NCBI RefSeq assembly: GCF_027941835.1
Contig: NZ_CP116005.1
Coordinates: 186,001 to 250,000, forward strand
DNA from: Sphingosinicella microcystinivorans
GTDB taxonomy: Bacteria; Pseudomonadota; Alphaproteobacteria; Sphingomonadales; Sphingomonadaceae
Direction of reading: 5' to 3'
Length of the DNA: 64,000 nt
In this document: positions 4,268 to 31,412 of the stretch, piece by piece
Layout of the letters: each line of letters opens with the position of its first letter
Position numbering within the stretch: position 1 is the first letter of the stretch
The notes under the pieces: model-generated
Told to the model about the DNA's origin: nothing
The model's input: the letters and a program-made list of their open reading frames with translations, nothing else
Databases searched by the model: none
Translations under genes and position numbers: made by a program

Positions 4268-5188
4268 ATGCGGATGCGTCAGGTCGAGGCCTTCAGGGCG
4301 GTGATGCTGAGCGGCGGGGTGACGGCCGCCTCGGCGATGCTCAACATCAGCCAACCCTCGGTGAGCCGCCTGATCGCCGACCTCGAGCACGCCGTCGGGT
4401 TCAGCCTGTTCGAACGGCGCGCCGGGCGCATATACCCGACCGCGCAGGCGCACATGCTGTTCGACACCGTGCGGCGCAGCTTCGTGGGGCTGGACCTGCT
4501 CGATCAGGCGGCGCGGCGGATTCGCGCGCATCCCGTCGGCACCGTCCGCATCGCGGCGCTGACCGCGATCGCGGCGACCGTGCTGCCGCCGGTGATCGCG
4601 CGCTTCCGGGAACGCCACCCGGACGTGCGCCTCACGGTCGAGGCGCTCGGCCAGCGCGCCATCGAGGACCGCGTGTTCCTGAGCCAGGCCGACCTCGGCA
4701 TCGGCGTCGCCGCACCGCCGCGCGACGGCATTCGCGTGACGCCGCTGGTCTCCGCCGACTATCTCTGCCTGCTGCCCGCAGGCCACCGGCTCGCCGCGAA
4801 GGACAGCATCGCGCTCGCCGATCTGGACGGCGAGGAATTCATCGGCCCGATGCACGAGGCCGACGCGCTCTGGGACGGGATCGACGCGGCGCTCGCGGCC
4901 GCGGGCGTGTCGGTGCGGCGGCGGCTCGAAACGCAGCAGTCGCAGGCGCTCTATGCGTTCGTGGAAGCCGGGCTCGGCGTCGCCATCGCCGAGCCGTTTT
5001 CGGCGCGGCTGTTCACGCGTCTCGGCCTCGTCGTGCGGCCCATCGCGCCGCCAATCGCCTACAGTTTCGTGATGCTGGAACCCGACATCGGCCCGACGCC
5101 GGACATCGTCGCGGGACTGGCCGAAGACATCAGGGCCGCGGCCCGCGCCTGTCTCGATCAGGCCGAGCCTTCCCAAGCCCGCGCATAA
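4268..5188 (+). CDS. LysR-family transcriptional regulator
   Basis: 306 residues. The N-terminal winged helix-turn-helix reads MRQVEAFRAVMLSGGVTAAS, then LNISQPSVSRLIADLE; a periplasmic-binding-protein-like effector domain follows. Start 4268 or 4274 (Met1 or Met3) puts the HTH at the normal place. It diverges from the PhyH dioxygenase and converges on the last gene of the sulfolactate operon, overlapping its 3' end by 31 bp. It could control the dioxygenase, the sulfolactate operon or both. The effector is unknown. Confidence 0.88.
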   Translation: MRMRQVEAFRAVMLSGGVTAASAMLNISQPSVSRLIADLEHAVGFSLFERRAGRIYPTAQAHMLFDTVRRSFVGLDLLDQAARRIRAHPVGTVRIAALTAIAATVLPPVIARFRERHPDVRLTVEALGQRAIEDRVFLSQADLGIGVAAPPRDGIRVTPLVSADYLCLLPAGHRLAAKDSIALADLDGEEFIGPMHEADALWDGIDAALAAAGVSVRRRLETQQSQALYAFVEAGLGVAIAEPFSARLFTRLGLVVRPIAPPIAYSFVMLEPDIGPTPDIVAGLAEDIRAAARACLDQAEPSQARA

Positions 5189-6330
5189 AGCACCGCCATC
5201 TCCGCCTCGCCGGGCACGCGGGGATTGTTCGCGGGGGAACCCGAGGCCAGCGCCTGCGTACACATCAAGGGCACGAGATCGTTCCAGCGCGCTGCGTCGA
5301 TGCCCCATGCGGCCGGTGACGGCACGTCGAGATCGCGGTTGAGCGCGGACAGTTCCCCGAGCAGGCGCGCGACCGCCGACTGGTCCCCCTCCCCGTCCTC
5401 CGCAACGCCCATCGCCCGCGCGCAATCGGCGTAACGGGTCATGGCGGCGGGCGCCGTCCATGCCGTGACGGCGGGCAGCAGCATGGCGTTCGAAAGCCCG
5501 TGCGGCACGTGGAAATGCGCGCCGATCGGGCGGCTCATGCCGTGGACGAGCGCGACCGAGCTGTTCGAGAAGGCGATGCCGCCCTGCATCGCGCCGAGCA
5601 TCATCGCCTCGCGCGCCGGGCGGTCGCCGGGATCGGCGCAGACGCGGCGGATGTTGGGCGCGAGCAGGCGCATCGCCGACAGCGCCATGCCGTCGCTGAA
5701 CGGATTGGCCTTGCGCGACACATAGGCCTCGATCGCGTGGGTGAGCAGATCGATGCCCGTGTCGGCGGTGAGCCGCCGCGGCTTGCCGAGCGTGAGTTCA
5801 TAATCGACGAGCGCCGCGACCGGCAGATAGGCAAGGCCCGCGCAGAGCATCTTCTCGTCGGTTTCGCCATCGGTGACGATCGTGAAGCGCGTCGCCTCGG
5901 AGCCCGTGCCCGCTGTCGTCGGGATCGCGATCACCGGCAGACCCAGCGCATCCTGCACGTGCGGCACCTTGTAGTCGGCCATCGCGCCGCCGTGGACGGC
6001 GAGCATGGCGATCGCCTTGGCGCTGTCGAGCGGGCTGCCGCCGCCGAAGCCGACGACGCAGTCGTGGTCGCCCTCCTTCAGGAAGGCGAGACCCGCCTCG
6101 ATCGAGGCGACGGTCGGGTCCGGCACCGTTTCCGTGAACACGCGCGCGGCGATCCCCGCCGCGCGCAGCCCGTCCAGCAGCCGCTCGACCATGCCCTGCC
6201 CGGCCAGAAACGCATCGGTGACGACGAGCGGCCGCGAGACGCCGAGCGCGCCCAGCACCTCGGCAAGCTGCTGCGAGGCGCCGCCGCCGATCCTGAGAAT
6301 GCGGGGAAGCGCGATGCCGGCAACCGTCAA
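5158..6330 (-). CDS. Iron-containing alcohol dehydrogenase family protein (candidate C3-sulfonate dehydrogenase)
   Basis: 390 residues, group III (Fe-type) alcohol dehydrogenase/maleylacetate reductase family. Visible are GGGSPLDSAKAIAML for NAD binding, PTTAGTGSEATRF, and the metal ligands: D in TGIDLLTHAIEAYVS, then His residues in SVALVHGMSRPIGAHFHVPHG. The start is a TTG at 6330 overlapping the MFS stop (TTGA); no in-frame ATG lies near. It is the last gene of the suyAB-comC-slcC-yeiH-MFS operon. Members of this family interconvert 3-carbon alcohols and aldehydes, so oxidation of dihydroxypropanesulfonate to sulfolactaldehyde, or the reverse, would fit. That assignment is inference from context only. 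Confidence 0.82.
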   Translation of the reverse strand: MTVAGIALPRILRIGGGASQQLAEVLGALGVSRPLVVTDAFLAGQGMVERLLDGLRAAGIAARVFTETVPDPTVASIEAGLAFLKEGDHDCVVGFGGGSPLDSAKAIAMLAVHGGAMADYKVPHVQDALGLPVIAIPTTAGTGSEATRFTIVTDGETDEKMLCAGLAYLPVAALVDYELTLGKPRRLTADTGIDLLTHAIEAYVSRKANPFSDGMALSAMRLLAPNIRRVCADPGDRPAREAMMLGAMQGGIAFSNSSVALVHGMSRPIGAHFHVPHGLSNAMLLPAVTAWTAPAAMTRYADCARAMGVAEDGEGDQSAVARLLGELSALNRDLDVPSPAAWGIDAARWNDLVPLMCTQALASGSPANNPRVPGEAEMAVLYARAWEGSA

Positions 6331-7652
6331 CTGACCATCTCCTCCCGGATCGTGCGCCGGGCCAGCCAGAACAGGCCGGAAGCCACCGCGCCGAACAACG
6401 TGAATATCATCAGCGACCAGCGTACCCCTTCCGCCGCGCCGAGGCCAAGAGGCCCGCTGATGAAATCGCTGATCGCGCCGACGCCGAGCGGGCCGAGGCC
6501 GAGCCCAATGAGATTGATGACGAACAGCAGCACCGCGGTCGCCGTCGCGCGCGTCTGCGGCCGCACGAGCCCTTGCACGGCAGCATAGCCCGGCCCGTAC
6601 CAGAGCGTGTTGAGCGCCGGCGGAAACGCGAGCAGCACGAGCGCAAGCACGGCGGAATCGACCGAGAGGCCGACGATGTAGAAGGGAATCCCCATCAGCG
6701 TCGAGATCGCCGGTATGCCGACATAGTGGCGAAGATCGCGCGCGCCGTAATGGTCCGCGAGCTGGCCGCCGAGCCACGTGCCGATCGCGCCCGTGACGCC
6801 GAGCACGAGGCCGAGCGCGAGGCCGAGGAACCCGGCGACGCCGAGGCCGAATCCCGTGGCGATGGTTTCCAGTTCCGCCGCGTGGTTCCGAAAGAAGAAC
6901 GGCGCGAGGAACGCCGCCGCGCCGTAGCCGATGAACGCCTTGATCGCCGCGCCGAACGCGATCAGCCAGAAGGCGCGCTTGCTGCGGATCTCCGCCATAG
7001 CCTCGGAAAAACTCGGTCCCGCCGCGCGCTTTGCGGCGAGATCGGCGGCGAGCTTCTTTCGCGGCTCCGTGAGCGTCGTCGCCGCAACGATCGCCATCAG
7101 GACGCCGGGCGCGCCCGCGACCAGAAAGGCCGCGCGCCAGCCCCACGCATCGGCGATGAGCCCGCCCATCGCCATGCCGATGAGGCCGCCGATCGGTGTG
7201 CCGAGCGCATAGAAGGCGAGCGCCGAGGCGCGCTTCTCGTGCGGCGTGTAATCGGTGATCAGCGAATGCGCGGGCGGCGTGCAGCCCGCCTCCCCGACGC
7301 CGACGCCGACACGCGCCAGCACGAGCTGCACGAAGTTCTGCGCGAAACCGCAGAGTACGGTGAAACCGCTCCACGCCCCGACCGCACAGGCAATGATGAG
7401 CGGCCGGTTGCCGCGCTCGGCGAGCCGCGCGATCGGGATGCCGAGCACCGTGTAGAACAGCGCGAAGGCAAGGCCGGTCATCACGCCGAGCTGCCAGTCG
7501 GCAAGGCCGAGATCGTGCTTTATCGGCTCGGCGAGAATGGCGATGATCTGCCGGTCGAGGAAATTCAGGATATAGATGACGAGCAGCACCGACAGCGCAT
7601 AGCGCCGATAGCCGGGGGTGACGGCGGGCGCTGCGGTGTTGGCGTCGTTCAT
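6327..7652 (-). CDS. MFS transporter, possible C3-sulfonate transporter
   Basis: 441 residues with about 12 membrane segments. It opens with YALSVLLVIYILNFLDRQII, then GLADWQLGVMTGLAFALFYTVLGIPIARLAERGNR, the loop motif of sphingomonad 'Spinster-like' MFS proteins. Start 7652 is chosen over 7691 because AGGGGAGG lies just upstream. It lies in the sulfolactate operon between the sulfite-exporter-like gene and the Fe-ADH gene, so uptake or export of sulfolactate, dihydroxypropanesulfonate or a related acid is likely. The direction of transport and substrate are not shown by the sequence. Confidence 0.85.
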   Translation of the reverse strand: MNDANTAAPAVTPGYRRYALSVLLVIYILNFLDRQIIAILAEPIKHDLGLADWQLGVMTGLAFALFYTVLGIPIARLAERGNRPLIIACAVGAWSGFTVLCGFAQNFVQLVLARVGVGVGEAGCTPPAHSLITDYTPHEKRASALAFYALGTPIGGLIGMAMGGLIADAWGWRAAFLVAGAPGVLMAIVAATTLTEPRKKLAADLAAKRAAGPSFSEAMAEIRSKRAFWLIAFGAAIKAFIGYGAAAFLAPFFFRNHAAELETIATGFGLGVAGFLGLALGLVLGVTGAIGTWLGGQLADHYGARDLRHYVGIPAISTLMGIPFYIVGLSVDSAVLALVLLAFPPALNTLWYGPGYAAVQGLVRPQTRATATAVLLFVINLIGLGLGPLGVGAISDFISGPLGLGAAEGVRWSLMIFTLFGAVASGLFWLARRTIREEMVS

Positions 7653-7713
7653 TCCATCCTCCCCTGCGGGACGTCGCATGTTCTGCCGCACGCGCTGCCC
7701 GGTATCCCGAAAG

Positions 7714-8736
7714 CTAGCCGCCGAGTTCGATCCACGCGAGCACGAAGACCGCGATGAACAGCGTTTCGGCCGCGACCATCACGACCGCCGTGCGCCCCGC
7801 CGCGATCAGGTCGCGCGCCGAGGTCTTGATGCCGAGCGCGGCCACCGACATCACCAGCAGCCAGCGCGACGCCTCGCCGAGCGCAGTCGCCATCCATGCC
7901 GGAACGATGCCCATGCCGTTCGCACCCGCGAGGATGACGAAGACGGCGAGAAAAGCGGGAAGCGGCGTGACGCGGGCGGCGCCGTCCATGTCACCGCGCG
8001 CGAAACGCGCGGCGCCCATGCTGATCAGCAGCACCACGGGCAGCAGCAGGGCGACGCGCATCAGCTTGACGATCGTGGCGGTGTCCCCGGTTTCCGGCGA
8101 GACCGTGAACCCCGCGCCCACCACCTGCGCGACATCGTGGATGGAGCCGCCGAGGAAGCGGCCGATCTCCTGATGGTCGAGGCCCGCCGCGACCGCGAGC
8201 GCGGGATAGGCGAGCATCGCGATCGTGCTGAGCGAGGTGATGCAGGCGATGACGATCACCGTATCGCGCTCGCTGTCGCGGCGCGGCCACGCGCACGCGA
8301 TCGCCATCGCCGCCGACGCGCCGCAGATGCCGACCGCGCCGCCCGAGAGAACGCCGAAGCGGGAATCGGTCTTCATCGCGCGCGCGAGGCACCAGCCGAA
8401 GCCGATCGTCCCGGCAACGGCGAACAGCACCATCGCGGCGGTCGACCAGCCGAGCGCGCCGATCTGCTGGAAGGTGATCCTGAGGCCGAGCAGCGCGACG
8501 CTGATCCTGAGCAGCGTGCGCGCCGAGAAGGCGATGCCCGGCGTGTAGCGCGCCTCCGCCGAGAGCGTGTTGAGCGCCATGCCGAGCAGCAGCGCGAACA
8601 CGATGGCGGGCGCCCCGTAATGATCGGACAGATAGGTCGCGGCGAGCGTCACGATCGCGACGGCGAGGAGGCCGGGCATCAGCGACTGGCCGGCCGCGAG
8701 CCAGCGGCGCGGCGCTTCGCCCGCCGCCGCGATCAC
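7714..8736 (-). CDS. YeiH/UPF0324-family membrane protein, putative sulfite/sulfate exporter
   Basis: 340 residues, hydrophobic throughout, about 10 membrane segments. It carries family hallmarks: GLLLAV-like first helix, GAPAIVFALLLGMALN, GGAVGICGASAAMAIA and GRFLGGSIHDVAQVVGAG. The family (PF03601) is annotated as putative sulfate exporters, and relatives recur beside desulfonation genes. The start is a GTG at 8736 overlapping the slcC stop. In this operon its natural job is removal of the toxic sulfite released by SuyAB. No sulfite dehydrogenase is encoded in the window, which makes an exporter the only visible outlet. Confidence 0.85.
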   Translation of the reverse strand: MIAAAGEAPRRWLAAGQSLMPGLLAVAIVTLAATYLSDHYGAPAIVFALLLGMALNTLSAEARYTPGIAFSARTLLRISVALLGLRITFQQIGALGWSTAAMVLFAVAGTIGFGWCLARAMKTDSRFGVLSGGAVGICGASAAMAIACAWPRRDSERDTVIVIACITSLSTIAMLAYPALAVAAGLDHQEIGRFLGGSIHDVAQVVGAGFTVSPETGDTATIVKLMRVALLLPVVLLISMGAARFARGDMDGAARVTPLPAFLAVFVILAGANGMGIVPAWMATALGEASRWLLVMSVAALGIKTSARDLIAAGRTAVVMVAAETLFIAVFVLAWIELGG

Positions 8737-9656
8737 GCGTCCAGCGCCGCCGCCACGGCCTCCGCGATGACGAAGCTGACGCGCGCGTTCGACTCCTCCG
8801 TCACCCCCGCGATATGCGGCGTGAGGACGAGGTTCGGCACACTTGCGAACGCCGCGCCGTCCGCCGCGGCGAGCGGCTCCGTCTCGAACACGTCGAACGC
8901 CGCGCCGCCGAGTTTCCCCTCGCGCAGCGCGGCCACGAGCGCGGCCTCGTCCACCACGCCGCCGCGCGCCGCGTTGACGAGGATCGCGCCCGGCTTCATC
9001 GCTTCGATCGCCGCCGCGTCGATCATCCGCCGCGTGTCGGCGGTGAGCGGGACATGCAGGCTGACGACATCGCTCGCCGCGAGGAGTGACGGTAGATCAA
9101 GGCGTCTCACGCCCGCCCATGCGGGATGGTCGGCGGCCAGCAGCGGATCATGGGCAACGACCTTAAAGCCGAGCGCGCGCGCTTTCGCCGCCGTCAGCCG
9201 GGCAATGGCGCCGAAGCCGACGAGGCCGAGCGTCTTGCCCTCCGCCTCCTGCCCGATCAGCGCCATGCGCGGCCATTCGCCCGCGGCCACGGCGGCGCTG
9301 GCGAACCATGCGCGGCGCAGCAGCATCAGCGCGGCGGTGATCACATATTCGGCGACCGCGAGATCGTTGGCGCCCGTCGCCGGACGCACCGCGACGCCGC
9401 GCGCCGCGCAGGCGGCGACGTCGATGTTGTCGAGCCCGACCCCGAGGCGGCCGACGATCCTGAGGCGCGACGCGGCAGCCAGAAGATCGCCGCGCACCTG
9501 CGTGCGATTGCGGACGACGAGCGCACGGCAATCCGCGAGCGCGGCAAGCAGATCGTCAGGCCGATCGACGAGCGTCGGATCATAGAGCACGTCGCGCCCG
9601 GCAAGCGACGCGACGGCCGCCTCGTCCATGAATTCGGTGATGACGATATCGCTCAT
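8733..9656 (-). CDS. slcC: (S)-sulfolactate dehydrogenase-like D-2-hydroxyacid dehydrogenase
   Basis: 307 residues, D-3-phosphoglycerate-dehydrogenase family. The substrate half has GRLGVGLDNIDVAAC; the NAD-binding Rossmann core begins LGLVGFGAIARLTAAKARALG. Catalytic Arg (NAARGGVVDE), Glu (VFETEPL) and His (TPHIAG) are in place. It lacks the long C-terminal ACT extension of biosynthetic SerA. Start ATG 9656 overlaps the comC-like stop. Together with ComC this enzyme would take (S)-sulfolactate to sulfopyruvate, the first half of the inversion known from sulfolactate-degrading bacteria. The name rests on operon context (suyAB, comC) plus family. Confidence 0.82.
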   Translation of the reverse strand: MSDIVITEFMDEAAVASLAGRDVLYDPTLVDRPDDLLAALADCRALVVRNRTQVRGDLLAAASRLRIVGRLGVGLDNIDVAACAARGVAVRPATGANDLAVAEYVITAALMLLRRAWFASAAVAAGEWPRMALIGQEAEGKTLGLVGFGAIARLTAAKARALGFKVVAHDPLLAADHPAWAGVRRLDLPSLLAASDVVSLHVPLTADTRRMIDAAAIEAMKPGAILVNAARGGVVDEAALVAALREGKLGGAAFDVFETEPLAAADGAAFASVPNLVLTPHIAGVTEESNARVSFVIAEAVAAALDA

Positions 9657-10672
9657 GCCGCCGCCGTCGTGCCCGAGAGCTCGCAAAGCTCGGCATAGAG
9701 GGACGCCGGGATTTCGATCCCCGCCGTCGCGGCACGCATCCGTCCCTCCAGCCGCTTGTCGCCGGGAAGCCGCGCGGGCGCTTCGCCCGCCACCGCCGCC
9801 AGCAGCGCATCCATACGCGCGGCGAAGCCCGTGTGGCCGAACGCCTCCGGCGAGATCGCGATCAGCAGATGCCCCAGCCGCGGCGGACCGCCGTTGCCGT
9901 CGAACAGCGAACTCGCCTCCCACCCGTAGGCCCCGCCCGCAAGCGCGCCCACCAGAATCTCGACCATCAGCGCGAGCGCGCTGCCCTTCGCGCCGCCGAC
10001 AGGGAGCAGGGCGCCATCGAGCGCCGCCGCCGCATCGGTCGTCGGCTGCCCGTAGGCATCGACCGCCCAACCCGGCGGGATCGGCTGGCCCGACGTCTTC
10101 GCCGCGATGATGCGCGCGCGGGCGCCCGCCGAAAGCGCCATGTCGACGACGAGCGGCGGGCGGCCCGCGACCGGCGCGGCAAAGGCGATGGGGTTGGTGC
10201 CGAGCATGGGCCTGCGGCCGCCGTGGAAGGCCATGGCGCGCGGCGAGTTGGCGCAGGCGATGGCGATCAGCCCTTCGTCGGCCAACCGCTCGACGTGGCG
10301 CCCGGCCTGCCCGAAATGATGCGAGCCCCGGATGCCCGCCGCCGCGATGCCCGACGCCCGCGCCATCGGCACGAGCCGGGCGATGGCAAGCTCGATCGCG
10401 GGATAAGCGAAGCCGTTCCGCGCGTCGATGCCGAGCGCGGCGGGCGCGGTCGCGGTGACGACCGGATGCGCCTTGCCGTCGACCTTGCCCGCGCGCAGCT
10501 GCAGCGCATAGCTCGCCACACGCGAGAGGCCATGACCGGGCTGGCCGTCGACCTCCGCGGCGACGAGCGCCCGCGCCGTGACCGCAGCGCTTTCGGAGGA
10601 CGCCCCGGCGGCGACCAGCGCGGCCTCGGCGAGCCGCCGCGCCTCCCGGACCTCGATACGCTTGCCGCTCAT
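9653..10672 (-). CDS. comC: (R)-sulfolactate dehydrogenase-like Ldh2/MDH2-family oxidoreductase
   Basis: 339 residues of the malate/L-lactate dehydrogenase family that contains ComC. Family features are [13 protein letters not shown] near residue 40, [12 protein letters not shown] (catalytic His) and [12 protein letters not shown] (NAD-binding loop). It lies immediately downstream of suyB with an overlapping ATG. In the inversion route it would reduce sulfopyruvate to (R)-sulfolactate, the isomer that SuyAB accepts. The pairing with an SlcC-like enzyme and SuyAB is what distinguishes it from ureidoglycolate, malate or lactate dehydrogenases of the same family. Confidence 0.84.
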
Positions 10673-12146: not shown

Positions 12147-12164
12147 ATCCATCCCCTCTCGATT

Positions 12165-12184: not shown

Positions 12185-12286
12185 CAATACAGATTGAATG
12201 ACTCCTTGCAAGGGGGTATCGACGGGACAAGCGGAACGGGCGGAAGAACGGCGTTGACAGAAGGCCGCGCCCCCGGTCTGCTCCGG

Positions 12287-23749: not shown

Positions 23750-25759
23750 ATGGCGTTTGAGGTGCAGGAGGGCGGTTTCACGCTGAACTTGGGCGGGAGA
23801 ACGATTCTCCGCCATGCGCCGGAGACGCCCGTCCTCTTCATCGGGCGCGGCGACGCCTCGATTGCCATGCACCACGGCCATTTCGACATCGAGGACTATG
23901 TCATCGAGCGCGTCGCGCTGCGGCACGCGGAGATTCGCGGAGACAAAGTATATCTCTCCACGTCCCCCGCGTCGCCGGCCGTTCTCGCGCTCCGCATCGA
24001 CGGCAACGAAACCGACGCCGCCATTGCATTCGAAGCCCTCGATCCGGCGATCAACCGGATATGGATTCGCGTCGTCGCCGAACCGGGTGAGCATGTGTGG
24101 GGCGGCGGCGAGCAGCTTTCGTACTTCGACATGGCGGGCAGACGGTTTCCGCTGTGGACCTCCGAACCCGGCGTCGGGCGCGACAAGTCGACGCTCATCA
24201 CGTGGCAGGCCGACCGCCGCAGCAATTCGGGTGGAGACTATTACCGGACCAACTATCCGCAGCCGACCTATGTGAGTTCGCGGCGCTACGCGCTGCACGT
24301 GGAGACCACGGCGTGGTCGGCCTTCGATTTCCGCCGCGAAGGATTCCACGAGATCGAGGTGTGGGACGTGCCCGCGCGCATCGAGCTGTGGGCGCGGCCG
24401 CATTTCAGCGACCTCGTGATGGCGCTCTCGGACCGCTTCGGCAAGCAGCCGCCGCTTCCCGAGTGGGTTTATGACGGGGCGATCATCGGCCTCAAGGACG
24501 GCGAGAACAGCTTCGACCGACTCGAAAAATACGGCGACGCCGGCGTCGCCGTTTCGGGTCTGTGGTGCGAAGACTGGGCAGGCCTACGTGAGACGTCGTT
24601 CGGACGGCGGCTGTTCTGGGACTGGCAGTACAACGCCGCCCGCTATCCCGATCTTCCGAAGCGCATCGCAGCGCTTGCGGCGCGCGGCATCCGCTTCCTC
24701 GCCTATGTGAACCCCTATCTCTGCGTGGACGGGTCGCTGTATCCCGAAGCGGAGAAGGCAGGTTATTTCGCCAAAAAGCTCGAAAGTGACGAAACCTATC
24801 TCGTCGACTTCGGTGAATTCGATTGCGGCGTCGTCGATTTCACGAACCCGGAAGCGTCGCAGTGGTTCGCCGAACATGTCATCGCGCGCAACATGCTCGA
24901 TCTCGGCATCATGGGATGGATGGCCGATTTCGGCGAATACCTTCCCACCGACATCCGTCTCGCCAGCGGCAAGGAGGCAACGCTCGCGCACAACGAATGG
25001 CCGGTGCTGTGGGCGGAGGTGAATGCCCGCGCCGTTGCCAGTCGGGGCAAGACGGGCGATGCGATCTTCTTCATGCGCGCGGGCTACAGCGGCGTGCAGC
25101 GCTATTGCCCGCTGCTGTGGGCGGGCGACCAGTCGGTCGATTTCTCGCGCCACGACGGCATCGGCACGGTGATCTGCGCGGCGCTCTCCTCGGGCCTCGT
25201 CGGCAATGCGTTCCATCACAGCGACGTCGGCGGCTATACGAGCCTGTTCGACAACGTCCGGACGCCGGAACTGCTGATGCGCTGGGCGGAGATGGCCGCG
25301 TTCACGCCGGTGATGCGCGGCCATGAAGGCAACCGGCCGCTCCAGAACCTCCAGATCGACCAGGACCCCGAGGTGCTCGCACACTTCGCGCGGATGACGC
25401 GCATCTACGTGCATCTCGCGCCCTACCTGCGGATGCTGTCCCGCGAAGCCGCCGAGACCGGCCTTCCCGTCCAGCGCCCGCTGTTCCTGCATTTCGAAGA
25501 CGATGCGCGCACCTATGGAATCCAGACCGCCTATCTTTACGGCCCCGACCTTCTCGTCGCACCGGTGATCGAGGCGGATCGCAGCGACTGGACGGCATAC
25601 CTGCCCGCAGGCGCCGAGTGGGTGCACGTGTGGAGCGGCAAACGCCATGCCGGCGGGCAAGATGTCACCGTTCCGGCGCCCTTCGGCGAACCGCCGGTTT
25701 TCTACCGCGCGGACTCCGCCCACGCCGATCTCTTCGAACGCATCGCCTCGGTACGCTGA
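23750..25759 (+). CDS. Sulfoquinovosidase, GH31 (KERWY-type)
   Basis: 669 residues, close to YihQ in length. The catalytic nucleophile is D393 in GWMADFGEYLPTD and the acid/base D460 in WAGDQSVDFS. The five residues that recognise the sulfonate in known sulfoquinovosidases can all be placed: K249, E274, R287, W290 and Y496. This is the KERWY set of the Agrobacterium enzyme, in contrast to QQRWY in E. coli YihQ. GGGGAGGAA precedes the ATG. No signal peptide is seen, so hydrolysis of sulfoquinovosylglycerol to SQ and glycerol is probably cytoplasmic. It starts the five-gene operon with MFS, glpD, AGPS-like and glycerol-kinase-like genes. Plain alpha-glucosidase or xylosidase is unlikely given these residues. 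Confidence 0.93.
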   Translation: MAFEVQEGGFTLNLGGRTILRHAPETPVLFIGRGDASIAMHHGHFDIEDYVIERVALRHAEIRGDKVYLSTSPASPAVLALRIDGNETDAAIAFEALDPAINRIWIRVVAEPGEHVWGGGEQLSYFDMAGRRFPLWTSEPGVGRDKSTLITWQADRRSNSGGDYYRTNYPQPTYVSSRRYALHVETTAWSAFDFRREGFHEIEVWDVPARIELWARPHFSDLVMALSDRFGKQPPLPEWVYDGAIIGLKDGENSFDRLEKYGDAGVAVSGLWCEDWAGLRETSFGRRLFWDWQYNAARYPDLPKRIAALAARGIRFLAYVNPYLCVDGSLYPEAEKAGYFAKKLESDETYLVDFGEFDCGVVDFTNPEASQWFAEHVIARNMLDLGIMGWMADFGEYLPTDIRLASGKEATLAHNEWPVLWAEVNARAVASRGKTGDAIFFMRAGYSGVQRYCPLLWAGDQSVDFSRHDGIGTVICAALSSGLVGNAFHHSDVGGYTSLFDNVRTPELLMRWAEMAAFTPVMRGHEGNRPLQNLQIDQDPEVLAHFARMTRIYVHLAPYLRMLSREAAETGLPVQRPLFLHFEDDARTYGIQTAYLYGPDLLVAPVIEADRSDWTAYLPAGAEWVHVWSGKRHAGGQDVTVPAPFGEPPVFYRADSAHADLFERIASVR

Positions 25760-27019
25760 ATGCTCGGTGCGCGCGGCATCCTTCTCCTCCTCGTGATCTT
25801 CGGCGGCGTCCTCAACTACGCCGACCGGCAGATGATCGCCGTGCTGAAGCCGATGCTGGAAAAGGAACTCGGCTGGAGCGATTCCGATTACGGCTATCTC
25901 GTCGCCGTGTTCCAGTTCGCCGCCGCCGCGAGCTTCGTGTTCGCGGGCTGGATCGTCGATCGGGTCGGCTGGCGTGCGGCCAATCCGCTCGCGGTCGGAT
26001 CGTGGAGCCTCGCCGCCGTCGCACACGGCTTCGCGCGCACGATGGGCGAATTCACGGTGGTCCGCATCGCGCTCGGCGCGACGGAAGCGCTGGGAACCCC
26101 GGCGGCGATCAAGACCATCGCGGTATGGTTCACCGCGAAGGAACGCTCGCTCGCGCTCGGCATCAACAATGCGGCGAACACCTGCGGCGCGATCATCGCG
26201 CCGCTCGCGATTCCCGCCATCGCGCTGGCGCTGAGCTGGCAGGCGGCGTTCTGGATCGTCGGCGGGCTCGGCTTCGTCTGGGTCGCGGCGTGGTTCGTGC
26301 TGCTGCGCCTGCCGGTGTTTCGGGCGCCGCCGCCGGGCGAAGGGGCTTCCGACGCCGCGGCGAGCGGCGCGCGCGTGCCGTGGCGGATCGTGCTGCGCGA
26401 TCGCAGGACATGGGCCATCGCGGGTGCGAAGGTGATGTCCGATCAGGTGTGGTGGTTCCTGCTGTTCTGGATGCCGGACCTGTTCAGCCGCGTGTTCGGG
26501 CTCGACATGCGCGGATTCGGCCTGCCGCTCGCCACGGTCTACACGATGTCTGCGATCGGGTCGCTGATCGGCGGCTACGCCTCCACGCGGATGCTCGCGA
26601 CCGGCATGTCGCTCAACCGCGCGCGCAAGCTGACGCTGCTCGTCTGTGCGCTGCTCGTTCTGCCCGTTCCACTCGTGCTGCACGTCGACAACTACTGGGC
26701 GGCCGTCGCGCTGCTCGGCCTCACGCTCGCCGCGCATCAGGGCTTTTCGGTGAACCTGTTCGCGACCGCCACGGACATCGTTCCGACCGAACGCATCGGC
26801 ACGGTCATCAGCATCGGCGCGCTTTGCGGCAACCTCGCCGGGATGCTCGTACTCCAGATCGCGGGCTGGGTGCTCGACGCGACCGGCAGCTATGGTCCGA
26901 TGTTCGCGCTCGTTTCGGTGTCCTATCTGATCGGGCTGCTCTGGCTGCACCTGCTGCTGCCCATCATCGAAGTGTCGGGCTCCGGCCCCGTCCCGCAGCA
27001 AATCCGGATGGCCCACTGA
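25760..27019 (+). CDS. MFS transporter of the ExuT/anion:cation symporter type, probable sulfoquinovoside importer
   Basis: 419 residues, about 12 membrane helices. Its N-terminus (VLNYADRQMIAVLKPMLEKE) and EALGTPAAIKTIAVWFTAKER are typical of the ACS group that carries hexuronates and other sugar acids. The ATG immediately follows the sulfoquinovosidase stop. An anion-type sugar carrier beside an intracellular sulfoquinovosidase suggests uptake of SQ or sulfoquinovosylglycerol across the inner membrane. No ABC importer for SQ is present. Confidence 0.87.
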   Translation: MLGARGILLLLVIFGGVLNYADRQMIAVLKPMLEKELGWSDSDYGYLVAVFQFAAAASFVFAGWIVDRVGWRAANPLAVGSWSLAAVAHGFARTMGEFTVVRIALGATEALGTPAAIKTIAVWFTAKERSLALGINNAANTCGAIIAPLAIPAIALALSWQAAFWIVGGLGFVWVAAWFVLLRLPVFRAPPPGEGASDAAASGARVPWRIVLRDRRTWAIAGAKVMSDQVWWFLLFWMPDLFSRVFGLDMRGFGLPLATVYTMSAIGSLIGGYASTRMLATGMSLNRARKLTLLVCALLVLPVPLVLHVDNYWAAVALLGLTLAAHQGFSVNLFATATDIVPTERIGTVISIGALCGNLAGMLVLQIAGWVLDATGSYGPMFALVSVSYLIGLLWLHLLLPIIEVSGSGPVPQQIRMAH

Positions 27020-27020
27020 C

Positions 27021-28598
27021 ATGACAGGAAGCAGCCTCGACGCATGGTCCCGCGCATCTGTCTTCGATACGCTCGACAGCACGCGTTTCGACCTGCTGGT
27101 GATCGGTGGCGGCGTGACGGGTGCCGGCATCGCGCGCGATGCCGCGATGCGCGGGCTCTCGGTGGCGCTTGTCGAAGCCGCCGACTATGCGAGCGGCACC
27201 AGCAGCCGCTCGTCCAAGATGATCCACGGCGGGCTGCGCTATCTCGCGCAGGGCGACGTCGCGCTCGTGCGCGAGGCCGCGTCCGAACGGCAGATATTGC
27301 GGCGGATCGCGCCGCATCTGGCGCGGATCACACCCTTCATCGTGCCCACGAACTCGCTGGCGACCGCAACCAAGCTGCGCGCGGCGCTGTGGACGTTCGA
27401 GAAGCTGGGCGGTGTCCCCGAAGGCGAGCGCCACGAGGTGCTGGACGCCGCCGCATTCGCGCAGCGCGAGCCCTTGATGCGGATGGACGGGCTGAACGGC
27501 GCGGTCGTCTACCCCGAATTCCTCACCGACGACGCGCGGCTGGTGCTGGCGAACGTGCGGGCGGCGCAGGATGCGGGCGCCGTCGTCCTCAATCACGCCG
27601 CCGCAACCGGACTGGTGATCGAAAGCGGCAAGGCGACCGGCGCCGTGGTTCGCTCGACGCTTGCCGGCGAGGATGCCGGTGCGCGCGTCTGCGCGAGGCT
27701 GATCGTGAATGCCGCCGGGCCGTGGGTGGACGCGGTGCGGACGCTCGATCCCGCCGAGGGCGGCGCGCGCCTCTCGCTCAGCCGCGGCATCCACCTCGTG
27801 CTGCGGCGCGAGCGCCTGCCGGTGAACGCCACCATCGTCCTGCGCGCGCCGGACAAGCGCAGCATCTTCGCCGTGCCGCGCGGACGCTTCACCTACGTCG
27901 GCACCACTGACGTGTTCCACGGCCAGGTCGGCTACTGGCCGGAATTCACGCGCGCCGATGTCGACTATCTGCTGGATACGCTCGCGCTGCGCATGAAGAC
28001 CGAACGGCCTGCCGACGCGGAGATCGTCGCGCTCTGGTCCGGCGTCCGGCCGCTGATCGCGGAGCCCGGCAAATCGGCGAGCGAAGTCTCCCGCAAGGAC
28101 GAGGTGTGGACCGCGCCCTCCGGCATGATCTCGATCGCCGGCGGCAAGCTCAGCGCTTACCGCGCGATGGCGGCACGCGTCGTCGACCTTGTCGTCGAGC
28201 GGCTCGGCATCAGCGCCCACCCCTGTGCGACGGCGGAGATCCCGCTGCCCGGCGGCGAGGCGATCCATCTTCCTGCCAGCGAGGACAATGCGCGCCTCGT
28301 CGGCCTCTATGGCAACGAAGCGCAGGCGGTGCTCGACGCAGGCGGCGATGTGGCGGCCGAAGCCGCGCGCGCCGTGCTGCACGAAGGTGCGGCAACGCTG
28401 GAGGACTATTGGGTGCGGCGCAGCGCGCGCGCGTGGTTCGACGACAACGCGGGGCTTGCCGCGCTCGCACCGGCGGCAGCGACGATGGCGCCCCTCCTCG
28501 GCTGGAGCGATGTGCGCCGTGCCGCGGAGATCGCGCATTGCGAGGAGTTGAACCGGAAGAGCCGGACGGCTCTCCGCAGCGGAACGGGAGAAGGTTGA
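27021..28598 (+). CDS. glpD: Glycerol-3-phosphate dehydrogenase, FAD-dependent
   Basis: 525 residues. It has the dinucleotide-binding start FDLLVIGGGVTGAGIARDAA, the GlpD signature SGTSSRSSKMIHGGLRYLAQ, and the C-terminal GlpD domain (about residues 390-510). It oxidises glycerol 3-phosphate to dihydroxyacetone phosphate at the membrane. It lies 1 bp after the MFS gene, and its stop overlaps the next start (TGATG). Next to a sulfoquinovosidase it explains how the glycerol half of sulfoquinovosylglycerol enters glycolysis. Confidence 0.92.
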   Translation: MTGSSLDAWSRASVFDTLDSTRFDLLVIGGGVTGAGIARDAAMRGLSVALVEAADYASGTSSRSSKMIHGGLRYLAQGDVALVREAASERQILRRIAPHLARITPFIVPTNSLATATKLRAALWTFEKLGGVPEGERHEVLDAAAFAQREPLMRMDGLNGAVVYPEFLTDDARLVLANVRAAQDAGAVVLNHAAATGLVIESGKATGAVVRSTLAGEDAGARVCARLIVNAAGPWVDAVRTLDPAEGGARLSLSRGIHLVLRRERLPVNATIVLRAPDKRSIFAVPRGRFTYVGTTDVFHGQVGYWPEFTRADVDYLLDTLALRMKTERPADAEIVALWSGVRPLIAEPGKSASEVSRKDEVWTAPSGMISIAGGKLSAYRAMAARVVDLVVERLGISAHPCATAEIPLPGGEAIHLPASEDNARLVGLYGNEAQAVLDAGGDVAAEAARAVLHEGAATLEDYWVRRSARAWFDDNAGLAALAPAAATMAPLLGWSDVRRAAEIAHCEELNRKSRTALRSGTGEG

Positions 28599-30004
28599 TG
28601 GAAACGATCACCGAAGCGCTGGCGAGCGCGATCGGCGCGGCGCGCGTATTCACGGACACGGCGACGCTGGATGCGCGCCGCTACGACCAGTGGGCGGTGA
28701 AGCACCTGCGCGACTGGGAAGGACGGGCGCCTGCGCGACCGGGCGTCGTCGTGCGCCCCGCCAGCGTGGAGGACGTGCAGAAGATCGTGCGCCTCGCCGC
28801 CGGGCGGCGCGTGCCGCTGGTGCCGTTCGGACTCGGCAGCGGCGTGTGCGGCGGCATCGAGCCGGACGCAGACAGCATCCTTCTCGACCTGAGCGCGATG
28901 GACCGGGTGCGCAGCATCGACGAGCACAATTTGCTCGCGAGCTTCGACGCCGGTCTCAACGGCATGAAGGCCGAGGAGGCGGTGGCGGCGCGCGGCCTCA
29001 CCATCGGGCACTGGCCGCAATCCATCGCGATCAGCAGCGTCGGCGGCTGGGTCGCGACACGCGCCTCGGGCCAGTTCTCCACCGCCTACGGCAATATCGA
29101 GGACATCATCCATTCGATCGAGGCGGTGCTGCCGAACGGCGATCTCGTCACGCTCGGCAAGGCGCCGCGGGCGGCCGCGGGGCCCGACCTGCGCCATATC
29201 CTGATGGGCGCGGAAGGCACGATGGGCGTCATCACCGGCGTCACGTTCTCGCTGCGCCGCAAGCCCGCGCATCGCGGCTTCAGCACGTTCTACGCGGACA
29301 CGATGGACCAGGGCCTCGAGGCGCAGCGCCGCATCGTGCAGGCGGACTGGCTGCCGCCCGTGATGCGCCAGTACGACGCGCGCGAGGGCAAGCGCCTGTT
29401 CCGCGACCATTACCGCGAGGGCAAGGCGATGCTGATCTTCGTGCACGAAGGGCCGGAAGCGCGCGTCGAGGCCGAGCTGGCGGGCGTCGTCGCCATCGCC
29501 GCCGAAGCCGGGCTGTCGCCGGGGGACGGGAACGCCGGCAAGGAATGGATCGAGCGCCGCAACCACGTGCCCTCGTGGCGCGACATGTTCGACCGCGGCA
29601 TCGTTGCCGACACGGTCGAGATCTCGGCCGACTGGAGCCGCATCGGCGCGATCTACAAGGACGCGATCGCGGGGCTGAACGGCGTGCCGGGCATCATCAA
29701 CGCCTCCGCACACAGCTCCCACGTCTATCGCAGCGGCATCAATCTCTACTTCAGCTTCGCCGCACGCTTCGAGGGCGACACGGCGCCGATGGAGCCGACC
29801 TATTTCGAATGCTGGCGGCAGATCATGGAAGCGACCGTGCGCCACGGCGGCGGCGTCGCCCACCATCACGGCGCCGGGCGGGTGCGCAAGGACTACCTCC
29901 TCAGCGATCTCGGGCCTGCGGGCATCGCCCTGCTGCGCCGCATCAAGGCCGCCGTCGACCCCGAAGGCATCATGAATCCGGGCAACCTCATTCCCGATGC
30001 CTGA
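28598..30004 (+). CDS. FAD-linked oxidase of the VAO family, alkylglycerone-phosphate-synthase-like
   Basis: 468 residues. The N-terminal FAD-binding (PCMH) domain shows VVVRPASVEDVQKIVRLAA, PFGLGSGVCGG and LMGAEGTMGVITG. The C-terminal domain ends with AHHHGAGRVRKDYL and DPEGIMNPGNL, close to the His-rich motif of AGPS. The equivalent trio with a glycerol kinase and GlpD occurs in other bacteria, but its substrate is not established. Candidates here are oxidation of a glycerol-derived hydroxy acid or a glyceryl lipid intermediate. A D-lactate/glycolate dehydrogenase role is the conventional alternative. Only the family is certain. Confidence 0.82.
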   Translation: METITEALASAIGAARVFTDTATLDARRYDQWAVKHLRDWEGRAPARPGVVVRPASVEDVQKIVRLAAGRRVPLVPFGLGSGVCGGIEPDADSILLDLSAMDRVRSIDEHNLLASFDAGLNGMKAEEAVAARGLTIGHWPQSIAISSVGGWVATRASGQFSTAYGNIEDIIHSIEAVLPNGDLVTLGKAPRAAAGPDLRHILMGAEGTMGVITGVTFSLRRKPAHRGFSTFYADTMDQGLEAQRRIVQADWLPPVMRQYDAREGKRLFRDHYREGKAMLIFVHEGPEARVEAELAGVVAIAAEAGLSPGDGNAGKEWIERRNHVPSWRDMFDRGIVADTVEISADWSRIGAIYKDAIAGLNGVPGIINASAHSSHVYRSGINLYFSFAARFEGDTAPMEPTYFECWRQIMEATVRHGGGVAHHHGAGRVRKDYLLSDLGPAGIALLRRIKAAVDPEGIMNPGNLIPDA

Positions 30005-31412
30005 GCTGCTGCTCGCCCTCGACGCCGGTACAACCGGCGTGCGTGCGATGGTGACGGACGCCGGGGGCATCGTGCTCGGCGTGTGTAAGCAGGGGATCGA
30101 ATCGCATTTCCCGGCGCCGGGCCGTGTCGAGCAGGATGCCGATGCGGTGTGGGAGGCTTGCCGCGCCGTGATCGACGGAGCACTCGCGGGCGCGGGCCGC
30201 ACGCCGGCGGATATCGCCGCGATCGGCCTCACGACGCAGCGCGCCAGCGTCGTGGTGTGGGACCGGCGCACCGGGCGCGCCGCCGCGCCGATGATCGTGT
30301 GGAGCGATCTGCGCGGCATGGCGCGCTACCGCGAGCTGCGCGCAGCGGGCTTCCTGTCGTGGCCGCAGGTGCCCGCCGCCAAGCTCGAAGCCGCGCTCGC
30401 CGCGGCAGAGGGCAGCGATCTCGCATGGGGCACGCTCGACAGCTGGCTGCTCTGGAAGCTCTCGGGCGGCAGCGTGCACGCCACCGACCTCTCCGCGGCA
30501 TGGATCAGCGGCTACGTCGACCCCGGCGACCTCACGCGCTGGAATGCCGGCCTGCTCGCTTTCCAGGGCCTCTCCGAGCGCATGTTTCCCAAAATCGTGG
30601 ACAGTTGGGGCGAGATCGCGACAGCGGACGCGCTCGGCGGCATCCCGGTGACGGCGCTGCTCGCCGACCAGCAGGCGAGCATGGTCGCGCACGGCGCGCT
30701 CGCCGAGGGGGCGTGGAAGATGACCTACGGCACCTCGGGCGTGCTGATGATGTCGACGGGCGCGCGGCCGGTTTCGCCCCATCGCACCATGCCGGTGGCG
30801 GCGATGACGCGCGTGGGCGGCGGCACGCGTTTCTGCATCGAAGGTATGGTCGTCAGCATCGGCAGTTTCGTGGAATGGCTCTGCGGCCTCGGCCTGTTCG
30901 CGTCCGGCGCCGATCTCGAGGTCGCAGCCGCATCGGTCGAGGACGCGAAAGGCGTGACCATACGCCCCTCGCTGCAAGGGCTCGGCGCGCCGCACGGGCG
31001 TTTCGACGTGCAGGCGCTGATCGCCGGGCTCAGCCTCGGCGCAGGCCGCGCCCACATCGCCCGCGCGGCGCTCACCGGCATCGCCTGCCGCGTGCGCGAG
31101 ATCGTCGACGTGCTCGCGGCCTCGGAGTTCGGCGTGCCCGAAACGCTGCCCGTCGACGGCGGGCTTTCCGCGAGCGGCACGCTGCTACAATTGCAGGCCG
31201 ACCTCATCGGACGCCCGGTTCGCCGCCACGCAGTCGCCGAAGGCTCGGCATTCGGGGCAGCGATGGCCGCCGGAATCGGCGCAGGCCTTTTCGGCGAGGC
31301 GGATCTCACCGCGCGCATCCGCTACGACCGCGACTATCAGCCCGCGATCAGCGCCGACGCGGCAAATGCCCTCTTCACGGATTGGCAGACAGCGGCGCTG
31401 GGCTCTCTGTAG
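29997..31412 (+). CDS. FGGY-family kinase, glycerol-kinase-like
   Basis: 471 residues. It has LALDAGTTGVRAMV (phosphate loop), IAAIGLTTQRASVVVWDRRTG, the actin-like GTLDSWLLWKLSGG and the C-terminal VDGGLSASGTLLQLQADLIG signature. The pattern is nearest to glycerol kinase. It is somewhat short, and the segment after IVWSDLR diverges from E. coli GlpK. It overlaps the FAD oxidase by 8 bp and is last in the operon, with glpD two genes earlier, so phosphorylation of glycerol from sulfoquinovosylglycerol is the straightforward role. The 3' end overlaps the convergent TIM-barrel gene by 38 bp. Confidence 0.84.
   Translation: MPELLLALDAGTTGVRAMVTDAGGIVLGVCKQGIESHFPAPGRVEQDADAVWEACRAVIDGALAGAGRTPADIAAIGLTTQRASVVVWDRRTGRAAAPMIVWSDLRGMARYRELRAAGFLSWPQVPAAKLEAALAAAEGSDLAWGTLDSWLLWKLSGGSVHATDLSAAWISGYVDPGDLTRWNAGLLAFQGLSERMFPKIVDSWGEIATADALGGIPVTALLADQQASMVAHGALAEGAWKMTYGTSGVLMMSTGARPVSPHRTMPVAAMTRVGGGTRFCIEGMVVSIGSFVEWLCGLGLFASGADLEVAAASVEDAKGVTIRPSLQGLGAPHGRFDVQALIAGLSLGAGRAHIARAALTGIACRVREIVDVLAASEFGVPETLPVDGGLSASGTLLQLQADLIGRPVRRHAVAEGSAFGAAMAAGIGAGLFGEADLTARIRYDRDYQPAISADAANALFTDWQTAALGSL

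What the first reader, a model, noticed from the sequence alone, without database searches (positions are those of the whole stretch)
5158..31412. One island encodes import, sulfo-Entner-Doudoroff breakdown and full desulfonation of sulfoquinovose
Seen: genes for a KERWY sulfoquinovosidase, mutarotase, SDR, SMP-30 lactonase, IlvD-type dehydratase, HpcH/HpaI aldolase, GabD-like aldehyde dehydrogenase, SlcC-like, ComC-like, SuyA, SuyB, a YeiH-type exporter and a TonB receptor, all within 26 kb. Known: the sulfo-ED pathway as described yields pyruvate plus sulfolactate, which is excreted and mineralised by other bacteria. Inferred: this organism joins the two halves and would turn SQ into two pyruvates and sulfite by itself, via an outer-membrane TonB receptor in place of an ABC importer. 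To my knowledge this combined architecture has not been described for sphingomonads.
Basis: partly seen in the sequence, partly recalled or inferred. Interest (0 to 1): 0.95.

Follow-up and report, generated by a model that had tools for sequence, protein, structure and literature searches.

The report
Gene island for complete sulfosugar breakdown
One gene island of about 26 kb, tied together by a shared DNA switch, appears to let a single bacterium take up the plant sulfolipid sugar sulfoquinovose and break it down all the way to ordinary metabolites and sulfite, a job usually described as split between two species.

Summary
The window carries a KERWY-type sulfoquinovosidase, a sulfo-ED set, a GabD-type dehydrogenase, SlcC/ComC, SuyAB, a YeiH-type exporter and a TonB receptor. 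The SDR's best solved match is P. putida SQ dehydrogenase, sulfonate arginines kept. Precedents for complete or 'extended' sulfoglycolysis exist (sulfo-TAL+SuyAB, Ensifer, Paracoccus sulfofucose), so it is a new variant, not a new kind. TonB import is common in such loci. No biochemistry is shown.

The parts
3396..4256 (-). PhyH-family dioxygenase; accessory, role unknown
   Evidence: PF05721; 73-80% to the PhyH beside sulfo-SMO loci L036, L041 and Novosphingobium L164; absent at this site in congener G201
4232..5188 (+). LysR regulator, divergent from PhyH; accessory
   Evidence: PF03466/PF00126; 70-72% in L036, L041 and L164
5158..6330 (-). iron-containing alcohol dehydrogenase; resident gene sandwiched by the acquired DNA, probably not part of the pathway
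   Evidence: PF00465; 93% aa in congener G201 at the empty site; no homologue in the G735 stretches; but 80-81% copies lie beside mfs1 in G253/G021
6327..7691 (-). MFS transporter 1
   Evidence: PF07690; 76% in the G735 island, 81% in G253/G021
7714..8736 (-). YeiH-type exporter, predicted sulfite or sulfate export
   Evidence: PF03601; TIGR00698 below cut-off, 123 vs 233 bits; an exporter of this annotation also follows suyAB-slcC-comC in Paracoccus aestuarii
8733..9656 (-). SlcC-like (S)-sulfolactate dehydrogenase
   Evidence: 2-hydroxyacid dehydrogenase Pfams; slcC homologue in 54 of 80 SuyB loci
9653..10672 (-). ComC-like (R)-sulfolactate dehydrogenase
   Evidence: PF02615; NCBIfam sulfolactate dehydrogenase is the top hit but below cut-off, 197 vs 500 bits; comC homologue in 70 of 80 SuyB loci
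10669..11844 (-). SuyB, large subunit of (R)-sulfolactate sulfolyase
   Evidence: PF20629/PF04295; 68% to the protein near hpsN-hpsO in Cupriavidus pinatubonensis; far below the galactarate dehydratase cut-off, 128.5 vs 730.9 bits
11859..12152 (-). SuyA, small subunit
   Evidence: PF08666; suyA homologue in 79 of 80 SuyB loci
12153..12312 (.). divergent promoter region between the desulfonation and sulfo-ED operons, with operator at 12167-12184
12313..14040 (+). IlvD/Edd-type dehydratase, predicted 6-deoxy-6-sulfogluconate dehydratase
   Evidence: PF00920; 74% to the dehydratase of Rhizobium/Shinella sulfo-ED clusters; tree inside a 13-row tandem clade 99/96
14051..14848 (+). HpcH/HpaI aldolase, predicted KDSG aldolase
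   Evidence: PF03328; 68-69% to the rhizobial sulfo-ED aldolase
14851..15657 (+). aldose 1-epimerase, predicted SQ mutarotase (start codon uncertain)
   Evidence: PF01263
15654..16511 (+). SMP-30 lactonase, predicted sulfogluconolactonase
   Evidence: PF08450; 52-57% to the rhizobial sulfo-ED lactonase
16508..17272 (+). SDR, predicted SQ dehydrogenase
   Evidence: best solved match 9gwu SQ 1-dehydrogenase; D99, R101, R152, R154, Q198 and the N-S-Y-K tetrad (PMC12133307 numbering, counted by hand) all kept
17285..18025 (-). GntR/HutC regulator, proposed repressor of the island
   Evidence: PF00392+PF07702; homologue in 59 of 80 SuyB loci
18049..18063 (+). weak operator-like site upstream of gntR
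18107..19546 (-). GabD-type aldehyde dehydrogenase, predicted sulfolactaldehyde dehydrogenase
   Evidence: PF00171; passes the NCBIfam SSADH subfamily cut-off, 664.8 vs 646.4; Arg pair, W-N-F and catalytic Cys of RlGabD kept but shared with SSADH, so not discriminating
19598..19649 (.). operator (19598-19615) and a weaker second site (19637-19649) between gabD and tonB
19650..21971 (+). TonB-dependent outer-membrane receptor, predicted uptake of SQ-glycerol or SQ
   Evidence: PF00593+PF07715; signal-peptide-like start and a DEIVVTA TonB-box-like stretch read from the sequence
22030..23643 (-). acyl-CoA ligase, predicted activation of sulfolipid fatty acids
   Evidence: NF004674 long-chain-fatty-acid--CoA ligase over cut-off, 817 vs 766
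23680..23697 (+). operator between acs and gh31
23750..25759 (+). GH31 sulfoquinovosidase (KERWY type), no signal peptide seen
   Evidence: NF007746 over cut-off, 944 vs 553
25760..27019 (+). MFS transporter 2
   Evidence: PF07690; 74% in the G735 island
27021..28598 (+). glycerol-3-phosphate dehydrogenase/oxidase (GlpD type)
   Evidence: PF01266+PF16901; below NCBIfam cut-offs
28598..30004 (+). FAD-linked oxidase, substrate unknown
   Evidence: PF01565+PF02913
29997..31412 (+). FGGY kinase, glycerol-kinase-like
   Evidence: PF00370+PF02782; TIGR01311 326 vs 590 bits, below cut-off
31375..32268 (-). uncharacterised protein; accessory
   Evidence: no Pfam match; 74-76% in G253/G021; no homologue in the G735 stretches

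Best explanation
The island is a horizontally gained, single-regulon pathway for complete use of sulfoquinovose (SQ) from plant or algal sulfolipid. SQ-glycerol (or SQ) crosses the outer membrane by the TonB receptor and the inner membrane by an MFS carrier. Cytoplasmic GH31 frees SQ and glycerol; glycerol goes through the GlpK-like kinase and GlpD, and fatty acids through the acyl-CoA ligase. SQ is oxidised (SDR), hydrolysed (SMP-30), dehydrated (IlvD type) and split (HpcH) to pyruvate and S-sulfolactaldehyde. GabD oxidises that to S-sulfolactate; SlcC and ComC invert it through sulfopyruvate to R-sulfolactate; SuyAB splits this to a second pyruvate and sulfite, exported by YeiH. A GntR/HutC repressor acting at one palindromic operator is proposed to switch these operons together. 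Shown: gene content, order, conserved residues, shared operator, recurrence, empty site. Inferred: every reaction, substrate, transport direction, and that this GntR binds this operator.
For: SQase-type match and KERWY residues. SDR top solved match is SQ dehydrogenase; its sulfonate-pocket Arg152/Arg154 are kept here but not in the next two solved SDRs, 4lvu and 7wwx (residue roles from passages of PMC12133307). Sulfo-ED enzymes match the rhizobial sulfo-ED clusters: dehydratase 74%, aldolase 68-69%, lactonase 52-57%, SDR 68-70%. SuyAB matches the pair near hpsNO in C. pinatubonensis. SlcC and ComC together in 53 of 80 SuyB loci. Genes within each operon lie 22 bp or less apart. Operator: 18-mer, 3 hits in 64 kb against 0.00 in 100 shuffles; 17-mer, 3 hits in 4.53 Mb, all in the island, reversed control 0. 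Core within 350 bp upstream of SuyA in 55 of 78 loci at <=3 mismatches against 0.25 in mononucleotide shuffles; it goes with a neighbouring gntR, 49 of 59 with and 6 of 19 without, p=5e-5. G735 keeps the pathway, glycerol and acyl genes with operators at the same four promoter regions.
Against: No activity, growth or expression data. GabD passes the NCBIfam succinate-semialdehyde dehydrogenase subfamily cut-off (664.8 vs 646.4) and is closer to E. coli SSADH 3jz4 (633 bits) than to 8c54 (567 bits), which I recall to be the R. leguminosarum SLA dehydrogenase. ComC, YeiH, GlpD and the GlpK-like kinase fall below NCBIfam cut-offs. No Mo-co dimer (PF03404) sulfite oxidase was found in the genome; other sulfite-oxidising enzymes were not tested. 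The 17-mer pattern was drawn from the three island sites, so only its absence elsewhere is informative, and an AT-rich palindrome could partly reflect promoters. Three of the 14 tandem loci lack a good operator upstream of SuyA: L079 and L088 (4 mismatches) and L133 (6). Roles of PhyH, LysR, the FAD oxidase and the 31,375-32,268 protein are unknown.
Confidence: 0.85

Rival explanations
1. Two independent pathways that merely sit side by side: sulfo-ED ending in excreted sulfolactate, and SuyAB serving sulfolactate or cysteate taken up from outside.
For: SuyAB/SlcC/ComC occur without sulfo-ED neighbours elsewhere: 66 of 80 SuyB loci have fewer than two sulfo-ED genes in the stretch held, though many stretches are cut short by contig ends. 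Either MFS of the island could carry sulfolactate.
Against: The divergent operons share one 160-bp gap and the same operator, which also sits at the gabD/tonB and acs/gh31 promoters. The joint set recurs in 14 of 80 loci and in G735. No TTT-type importer lies in the island, whereas the Paracoccus aestuarii suyAB cluster has one.
Confidence: 0.07
2. The substrate is another sulfosugar (for example sulfofucose), or the ED branch serves an unsulfonated sugar such as arabinose or xylose; SQase only supplies part of the flux.
For: NCBIfam's best name for the dehydratase is L-arabinonate dehydratase (880.9 vs cut-off 882) and for the SDR D-xylose 1-dehydrogenase (302 vs 400). Sulfofucose ED plus SuyAB is a real pathway (PMC12421959).
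Against: Sulfofucolysis uses a PF13378/PF02746 dehydratase, not PF00920 (PMC12421959). The dehydratases beside GH31 in rhizobial sulfo-ED clusters are also annotated L-arabinonate dehydratase. KERWY GH31 and SQDH Arg152/Arg154 point to SQ.
Confidence: 0.06
3. The island is present but not functional in this strain (a recent or decaying acquisition).
For: GH31 and SuyB were not found in the four other-species genomes of the genus (G085, G150, G201, and G242 at 83% completeness) nor in the 78%-complete same-species MAG G277, so the island is not a fixed trait of the genus.
Against: The called frames are open, operons tight and operators present.
Confidence: 0.03

Closest known systems
Sulfo-ED pathway of Pseudomonas putida SQ1 and Rhizobium leguminosarum
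   Same: SQase, SQ dehydrogenase, lactonase, dehydratase, aldolase, SLA-dehydrogenase-type enzyme; same families, 52-74% identical to two rhizobial clusters
   Different: The rhizobial clusters seen (L165, L166) have an ABC transporter and a TauE/TSUP exporter and no SuyAB; here SlcC/ComC/SuyAB follow and TonB plus MFS stand where ABC stood
Tandem sulfofucolytic-sulfolyase pathway of Paracoccus wurundjeri (PMC12421959)
   Same: ED-type C6 cleavage joined to SlcC/ComC/SuyAB in one organism and one cluster
   Different: Different sugar, different dehydratase family, ABC import, no sulfo-glycosidase identified, no SlaB/GabD homologue
Extended sulfoglycolysis: sulfo-TAL+SuyAB in Thermotogae/Chloroflexi (PMC9594981) and sulfo-ED plus DHPS clusters in Ensifer sp. 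HO-A22 (PMC10599462)
   Same: Proposed full use of SQ carbon in one genome
   Different: Another upper pathway in the first, a DHPS-degrading cluster in the second; both proposed from genomes
Sulfo-SMO loci of Novosphingobium and kin (PMC13372026; L164, G253, G021 here)
   Same: PhyH-LysR, TonB, acyl-CoA ligase and GH31 in all three loci; in G253/G021 also glpD, FAD oxidase, glpK-like, mfs1 and the 31.4-kb protein
   Different: Desulfonation there by a flavin monooxygenase plus aldo-keto reductase; here that core is absent and sulfo-ED+SuyAB stands in its place
SdhR, a HutC-subfamily regulator with motif TCTTATGTCTTATATAAGACATAAGA (PMC4494728, one passage)
   Same: The 14-bp centre of that motif is the operator core found here
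   Different: The full 26-bp motif has 6, 11, 6 and 7 mismatches at the four window sites; its target genes were not compared

Membership tests
GH31 sulfoquinovosidase | KERWY/QQRWY substrate residues and two catalytic Asp | tested here: met
   All five plus both Asp line up with 5ohy/5ohs; residue numbers recalled, counted by hand
SQ dehydrogenase (PF13561) | N-S-Y-K tetrad and sulfonate Arg152, with Arg154, Asp99, Arg101, Gln198 | tested here: met
   alignment against roles given in PMC12133307
Sulfo-ED pathway | SQ dehydrogenase, lactonase, PF00920 dehydratase and PF03328 aldolase clustered with SQase | tested here: met
Sulfo-ED pathway | conversion of SQ to pyruvate and SLA | not testable with these tools
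   no biochemistry
Sulfo-ED pathway | dedicated SLA dehydrogenase | tested here: inconclusive
   GabD-type enzyme present; over the SSADH subfamily cut-off; key residues shared with SSADH
(R)-sulfolactate sulfolyase SuyAB | split small SAF subunit plus large GD_AH subunit, adjacent, distinct from one-chain galactarate dehydratase | tested here: met
SlcC/ComC racemising pair | dehydrogenases of the two families beside suyAB | tested here: met
   activity untested
SlcC/ComC racemising pair | ComC above the NCBIfam sulfolactate dehydrogenase cut-off | tested here: not met
   197 vs 500 bits; so ComC-like by family and context only
Sulfo-SMO pathway | SQ monooxygenase and 6-dehydroglucose reductase | tested here: not met
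   no smoC/smoB in the window; best smoC relative among the genome's eight luciferase-family loci listed is 31%
Sulfofucolytic ED | PF13378/PF02746 dehydratase | tested here: not met
   the island dehydratase is PF00920; definition from PMC12421959

The most novel reading that the evidence does not exclude
A transferable, single-switch cassette for complete sulfolipid head-group use (uptake, deglycosylation, sulfo-ED, stereo-inversion, C-S cleavage, sulfite export, glycerol and acyl salvage) circulates among uncultured Gamma- and Alphaproteobacteria. In this bacterium it takes the place of the monooxygenase core found behind similar SQ-uptake genes in its family, under a sulfolactate-type GntR regulon. 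It would make the two-species model of sulfo-ED turnover only one of two modes.
Probability: 0.6. Interest if true: 0.72.

Novelty: new variant of a known kind. Interest (0 to 1): 0.6.

Why it matters
SQ is made at about 10 billion tons a year (PMC12890257, abstract; also PMC10755693, search listing), and sulfo-ED turnover is usually drawn as two tiers with sulfolactate passed between species (PMC12890257, sections read). A one-cell route changes who releases sulfite and how much C3 sulfonate reaches the environment. The operator gives a genome-readable test of which clusters are wired for complete use. The contrast with the sulfo-SMO loci of the same family offers a natural comparison of an O2-dependent and an O2-independent desulfonation core behind similar uptake genes.

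Tried and rejected
Rejected: (1) that TonB import is special to this island; loci of the family with sulfo-SMO genes have it too. (2) That the window's GH31 is shown to come from sulfo-SMO loci of its family: a first tree gave 91 support, but with G735 added the placement is unresolved (73/28; grouping with G735 not rejected, p-AU 0.42; 21 of the 42 rows were used there). (3) That PhyH is an SQ dioxygenase: no reference sequence was at hand and PhyH accompanies sulfo-SMO loci, so I leave it unknown. (4) A Mo-co dimer sulfite oxidase: PF03404 not found. (5) A composition anomaly or tRNA at the island: GC 65-72% per 2-kb step against 62-71% in the rest of the window, no tRNA in the window. (6) The SDR tree was too poorly resolved to use. 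L085 and L133 (long branches) and L167 stayed in trees and counts but carry no origin claim.

The same-species MAG G277 cannot decide presence: its contigs break at window positions 3,097 and 32,879, near the island borders. The G085 and G242 contigs end before the island. Only G201 and G150 show the empty site; G150 also lacks the esterase gene at 2,265-3,308.

Full report
WHAT IS THERE. The window is G000:C1:186,001-250,000 of a 4,528,034-bp single-contig genome. Sulfo-SMO loci of genomes in its family match Novosphingobium plasmids (G253: 81% over 95% of 8.1 kb with Novosphingobium sp. EMRT-2; G001: 77-78% in Novosphingobium plasmids over 39-49% of 12 kb), so 'sphingomonad' fits but is an inference. 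Gene calls are, Pfam, NCBIfam, gene gaps. Transcription units read from tight spacing: suyA-suyB-comC-slcC-yeiH-mfs1 (minus strand, running into the resident iron-ADH); ilvD-hpcH-galM-smp30-sdr (plus); gabD (minus) divergent from tonB (plus); acs (minus) divergent from gh31-mfs2-glpD-FADox-glpK-like (plus). A GntR/HutC regulator lies between sdr and gabD.

IDENTITY TESTS. GH31 matches solved chains 5ohy/5ohs over its whole length at 1063 bits, then 8r56 (834) and 6pnr (811), two chains named only by family, then the E. coli-type YihQ/sulfoquinovosidase entry 5aed (727); other GH31 chains score 148 or less. The SDR's best solved match is SQ 1-dehydrogenase 9gwu (282 bits; next 229 and 212). Counting by hand along the printed alignment (chain number minus 13 gives the paper's numbers), Asp99, Arg101, Asn119, Ser147, Arg152, Arg154, Tyr160, Lys164 and Gln198 are all identical in the window protein, while Arg152 and Arg154 are replaced in 4lvu and 7wwx. 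Roles are from passages of PMC12133307. The lactonase, dehydratase, aldolase and SDR match the sulfo-ED clusters of Rhizobium sp. WSM4643 and Shinella sp. WSC3-e at 52-57%, 74%, 68-69% and 68-70%. SuyB is 68% identical to the UxaA-family protein near hpsN and hpsO in Cupriavidus pinatubonensis, the species in which SuyAB is described (PMC9594981, passage; PMC12890257, figure legend). GabD keeps the Arg pair proposed to bind sulfonate in RlGabD (PMC10599462, passages), but so does E. coli SSADH, and it passes the NCBIfam SSADH subfamily cut-off; the rhizobial sulfo-ED copies are annotated as SSADH too. Its role here rests on context.

ONE REGULON. The intergenic gaps hold a common palindrome. 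CTCTTATATAAGACATAA with up to 3 mismatches occurs 3 times in 64 kb, at 12,167, 19,598 and 23,680, against 0.00 in 100 dinucleotide shuffles. A shorter form adds the gntR upstream region at 18,051 and a second tonB site at 19,637 (6 hits against 0.13). In the whole genome TCTTATATWAKACATAA with up to 2 mismatches gives 3 hits, all these; the reversed control gives 0. The pattern was drawn from these sites, so the informative part is that there are no others. The core GTCTTATATAAGAC lies within 350 bp upstream of SuyA in 55 of 78 testable loci at <=3 mismatches (79 of 80 loci have a SuyA match, one had too little upstream sequence; mononucleotide shuffles give 0.25). Among the 14 tandem loci it does so in 11; L079 and L088 have 4 mismatches and L133 has 6. 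It goes with a neighbouring gntR: 49 of 59 with, 6 of 19 without, the latter including cut contigs. In the family's sulfo-SMO loci it is found upstream of GH31 in 0 of 32, and one site at <=2 mismatches occurs in 778 kb of them. A passage of PMC4494728 gives the motif of SdhR (HutC subfamily) as TCTTATGTCTTATATAAGACATAAGA, whose centre is this core. I infer that the island's GntR binds it.

A GAINED ISLAND. In congener G201 the left flank (window 1-3,367) is followed after 14 bp by the iron-ADH (window 5,167-6,367; 93% aa) and after 634 bp by window 32,377 onward. G150 shows the same order, without the 2,265-3,308 esterase. So 3,368-5,166 (PhyH, LysR) and 6,368-32,376 (26 kb) are extra here. 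G085 and G242 contigs end too early, and the same-species MAG G277 breaks near both borders.

DISTRIBUTION. In 298 genomes of the family, GH31 SQase (E<=1e-120) is in 47 and SuyB (E<=1e-60) in 1, this one. Of the 46 other GH31 genomes I fetched 32; all 32 have a homologue of the sulfo-SMO monooxygenase and/or reductase in the stretch held (both 27, reductase only 4, monooxygenase only 1), and none a sulfo-ED set. In the order, SuyB (E<=1e-100) is in 2 of 396: this genome and G323, whose contig has the length of the Alpha proteobacterium Q-1 record behind L096 and which has no sulfo-ED set beside SuyAB. In the class, SuyB is in 34 of 385, GH31 (E<=1e-150) in 4 of 385 and both in 2, this genome and G735. 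G735, of another family, holds glpD, FAD oxidase, glpK-like, mfs2, gh31, acs, tonB, gabD, gntR, mfs1, yeiH, slcC, comC, suyBA, ilvD, hpcH, galM, smp30 and sdr in one stretch, with operator-like sites at the acs/gh31, tonB/gabD, gntR and suyA/ilvD promoters; it has no PhyH, LysR, iron-ADH or 31.4-kb protein match there. Among 80 named SuyB loci (the best 80 of at least 590), 14 have two or more sulfo-ED genes at >=35% identity in the stretch held, and 8 of those also a GH31 of 59-68%. Thirteen of the 14 lie in one 21-row SuyB clade with the window (SH-aLRT 98) that also holds truncated L091 and six loci without the joined set; L133, a Rhodobacteraceae MAG, lies apart and looks like a separate joining. 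The window's dehydratase falls inside a 13-row tandem clade (99/96). Where its GH31 belongs is unresolved.

MECHANISM. Sulfo-ED yields S-sulfolactaldehyde and hence S-sulfolactate (PMC12421959), whereas SuyAB acts on (R)-sulfolactate (PMC9594981). The SlcC/ComC pair supplies the needed inversion, so the gene set is stereochemically complete. Net inferred: SQ to two pyruvate and sulfite with two NAD(P)H gained. GH31 shows no signal peptide by eye, so SQ-glycerol is probably hydrolysed inside the cell; its operon continues with an MFS carrier, GlpD, a FAD oxidase and a glycerol-kinase-like enzyme, which fits release of glycerol. The acyl-CoA ligase fits fatty acids of the sulfolipid. YeiH would export sulfite.

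AGAINST KNOWN SYSTEMS. Complete SQ use by one cell has been proposed for Ensifer sp. HO-A22 (PMC10599462, section read) and for sulfo-TAL clusters with SuyAB (PMC9594981, section read). For the related sugar sulfofucose it was studied in Paracoccus, whose authors call such coexistence unusual (PMC12421959, results and discussion read in part). A 2026 review ends sulfo-ED at exported sulfolactate, while noting that some C-C cleavers carry genes for further breakdown (PMC12890257, two sections read). The 2026 aquatic survey assigns the Novosphingobium relatives it names to sulfo-SMO and screened selected genomes for SuyAB, SlcC and ComC; its supplements were not available to me (PMC13372026, passages and one section). 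My searches of open papers did not turn up a sulfo-ED+SuyAB island in a sphingomonad; sulfoquinovosidase with TonB gave 0 papers. Searches showed only 12 of 2,392 and 8 of 228 papers and so say little, and subscription papers are not held. Absence from print is therefore not shown.

VERDICT. New variant of a known kind.

Noticed in passing
window 53047-54543: A second IlvD/Edd-family dehydratase, 36% to the island dehydratase, lies in the same window, probably the ordinary Edd.
   Followed up: no
L168 (Sinorhizobium mexicanum plasmid) 4594, 11992, 14655: The same operator core (1-3 mismatches) occurs three times in a locus of a strain that PMC12421959 lists for sulfofucose plus SuyAB, suggesting a similar regulon design there.
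   Followed up: partly
L133 12.3-18.5 kb: A Rhodobacteraceae MAG joins sulfo-ED genes to suyAB apparently independently, with SuyB in a different clade and no good copy of this operator.
   Followed up: partly
window 3396-5188; L036, L041, L164: A divergent PhyH dioxygenase/LysR pair accompanies SQ loci of both the sulfo-SMO and the present type; its role is unknown.
   Followed up: no
window 28598-30004: A FAD-linked oxidase of unknown substrate sits in the glycerol operon and is kept in G735, G253 and G021.
   Followed up: no
L199/L200 (G735): G735 carries a second, more distant glpD/glpK pair inside its island, between gntR and mfs1.
   Followed up: no
L049 15275: The one operator-like site (2 mismatches) in 778 kb of sulfo-SMO loci of the family, about 15 kb from GH31; probably chance.
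   Followed up: no
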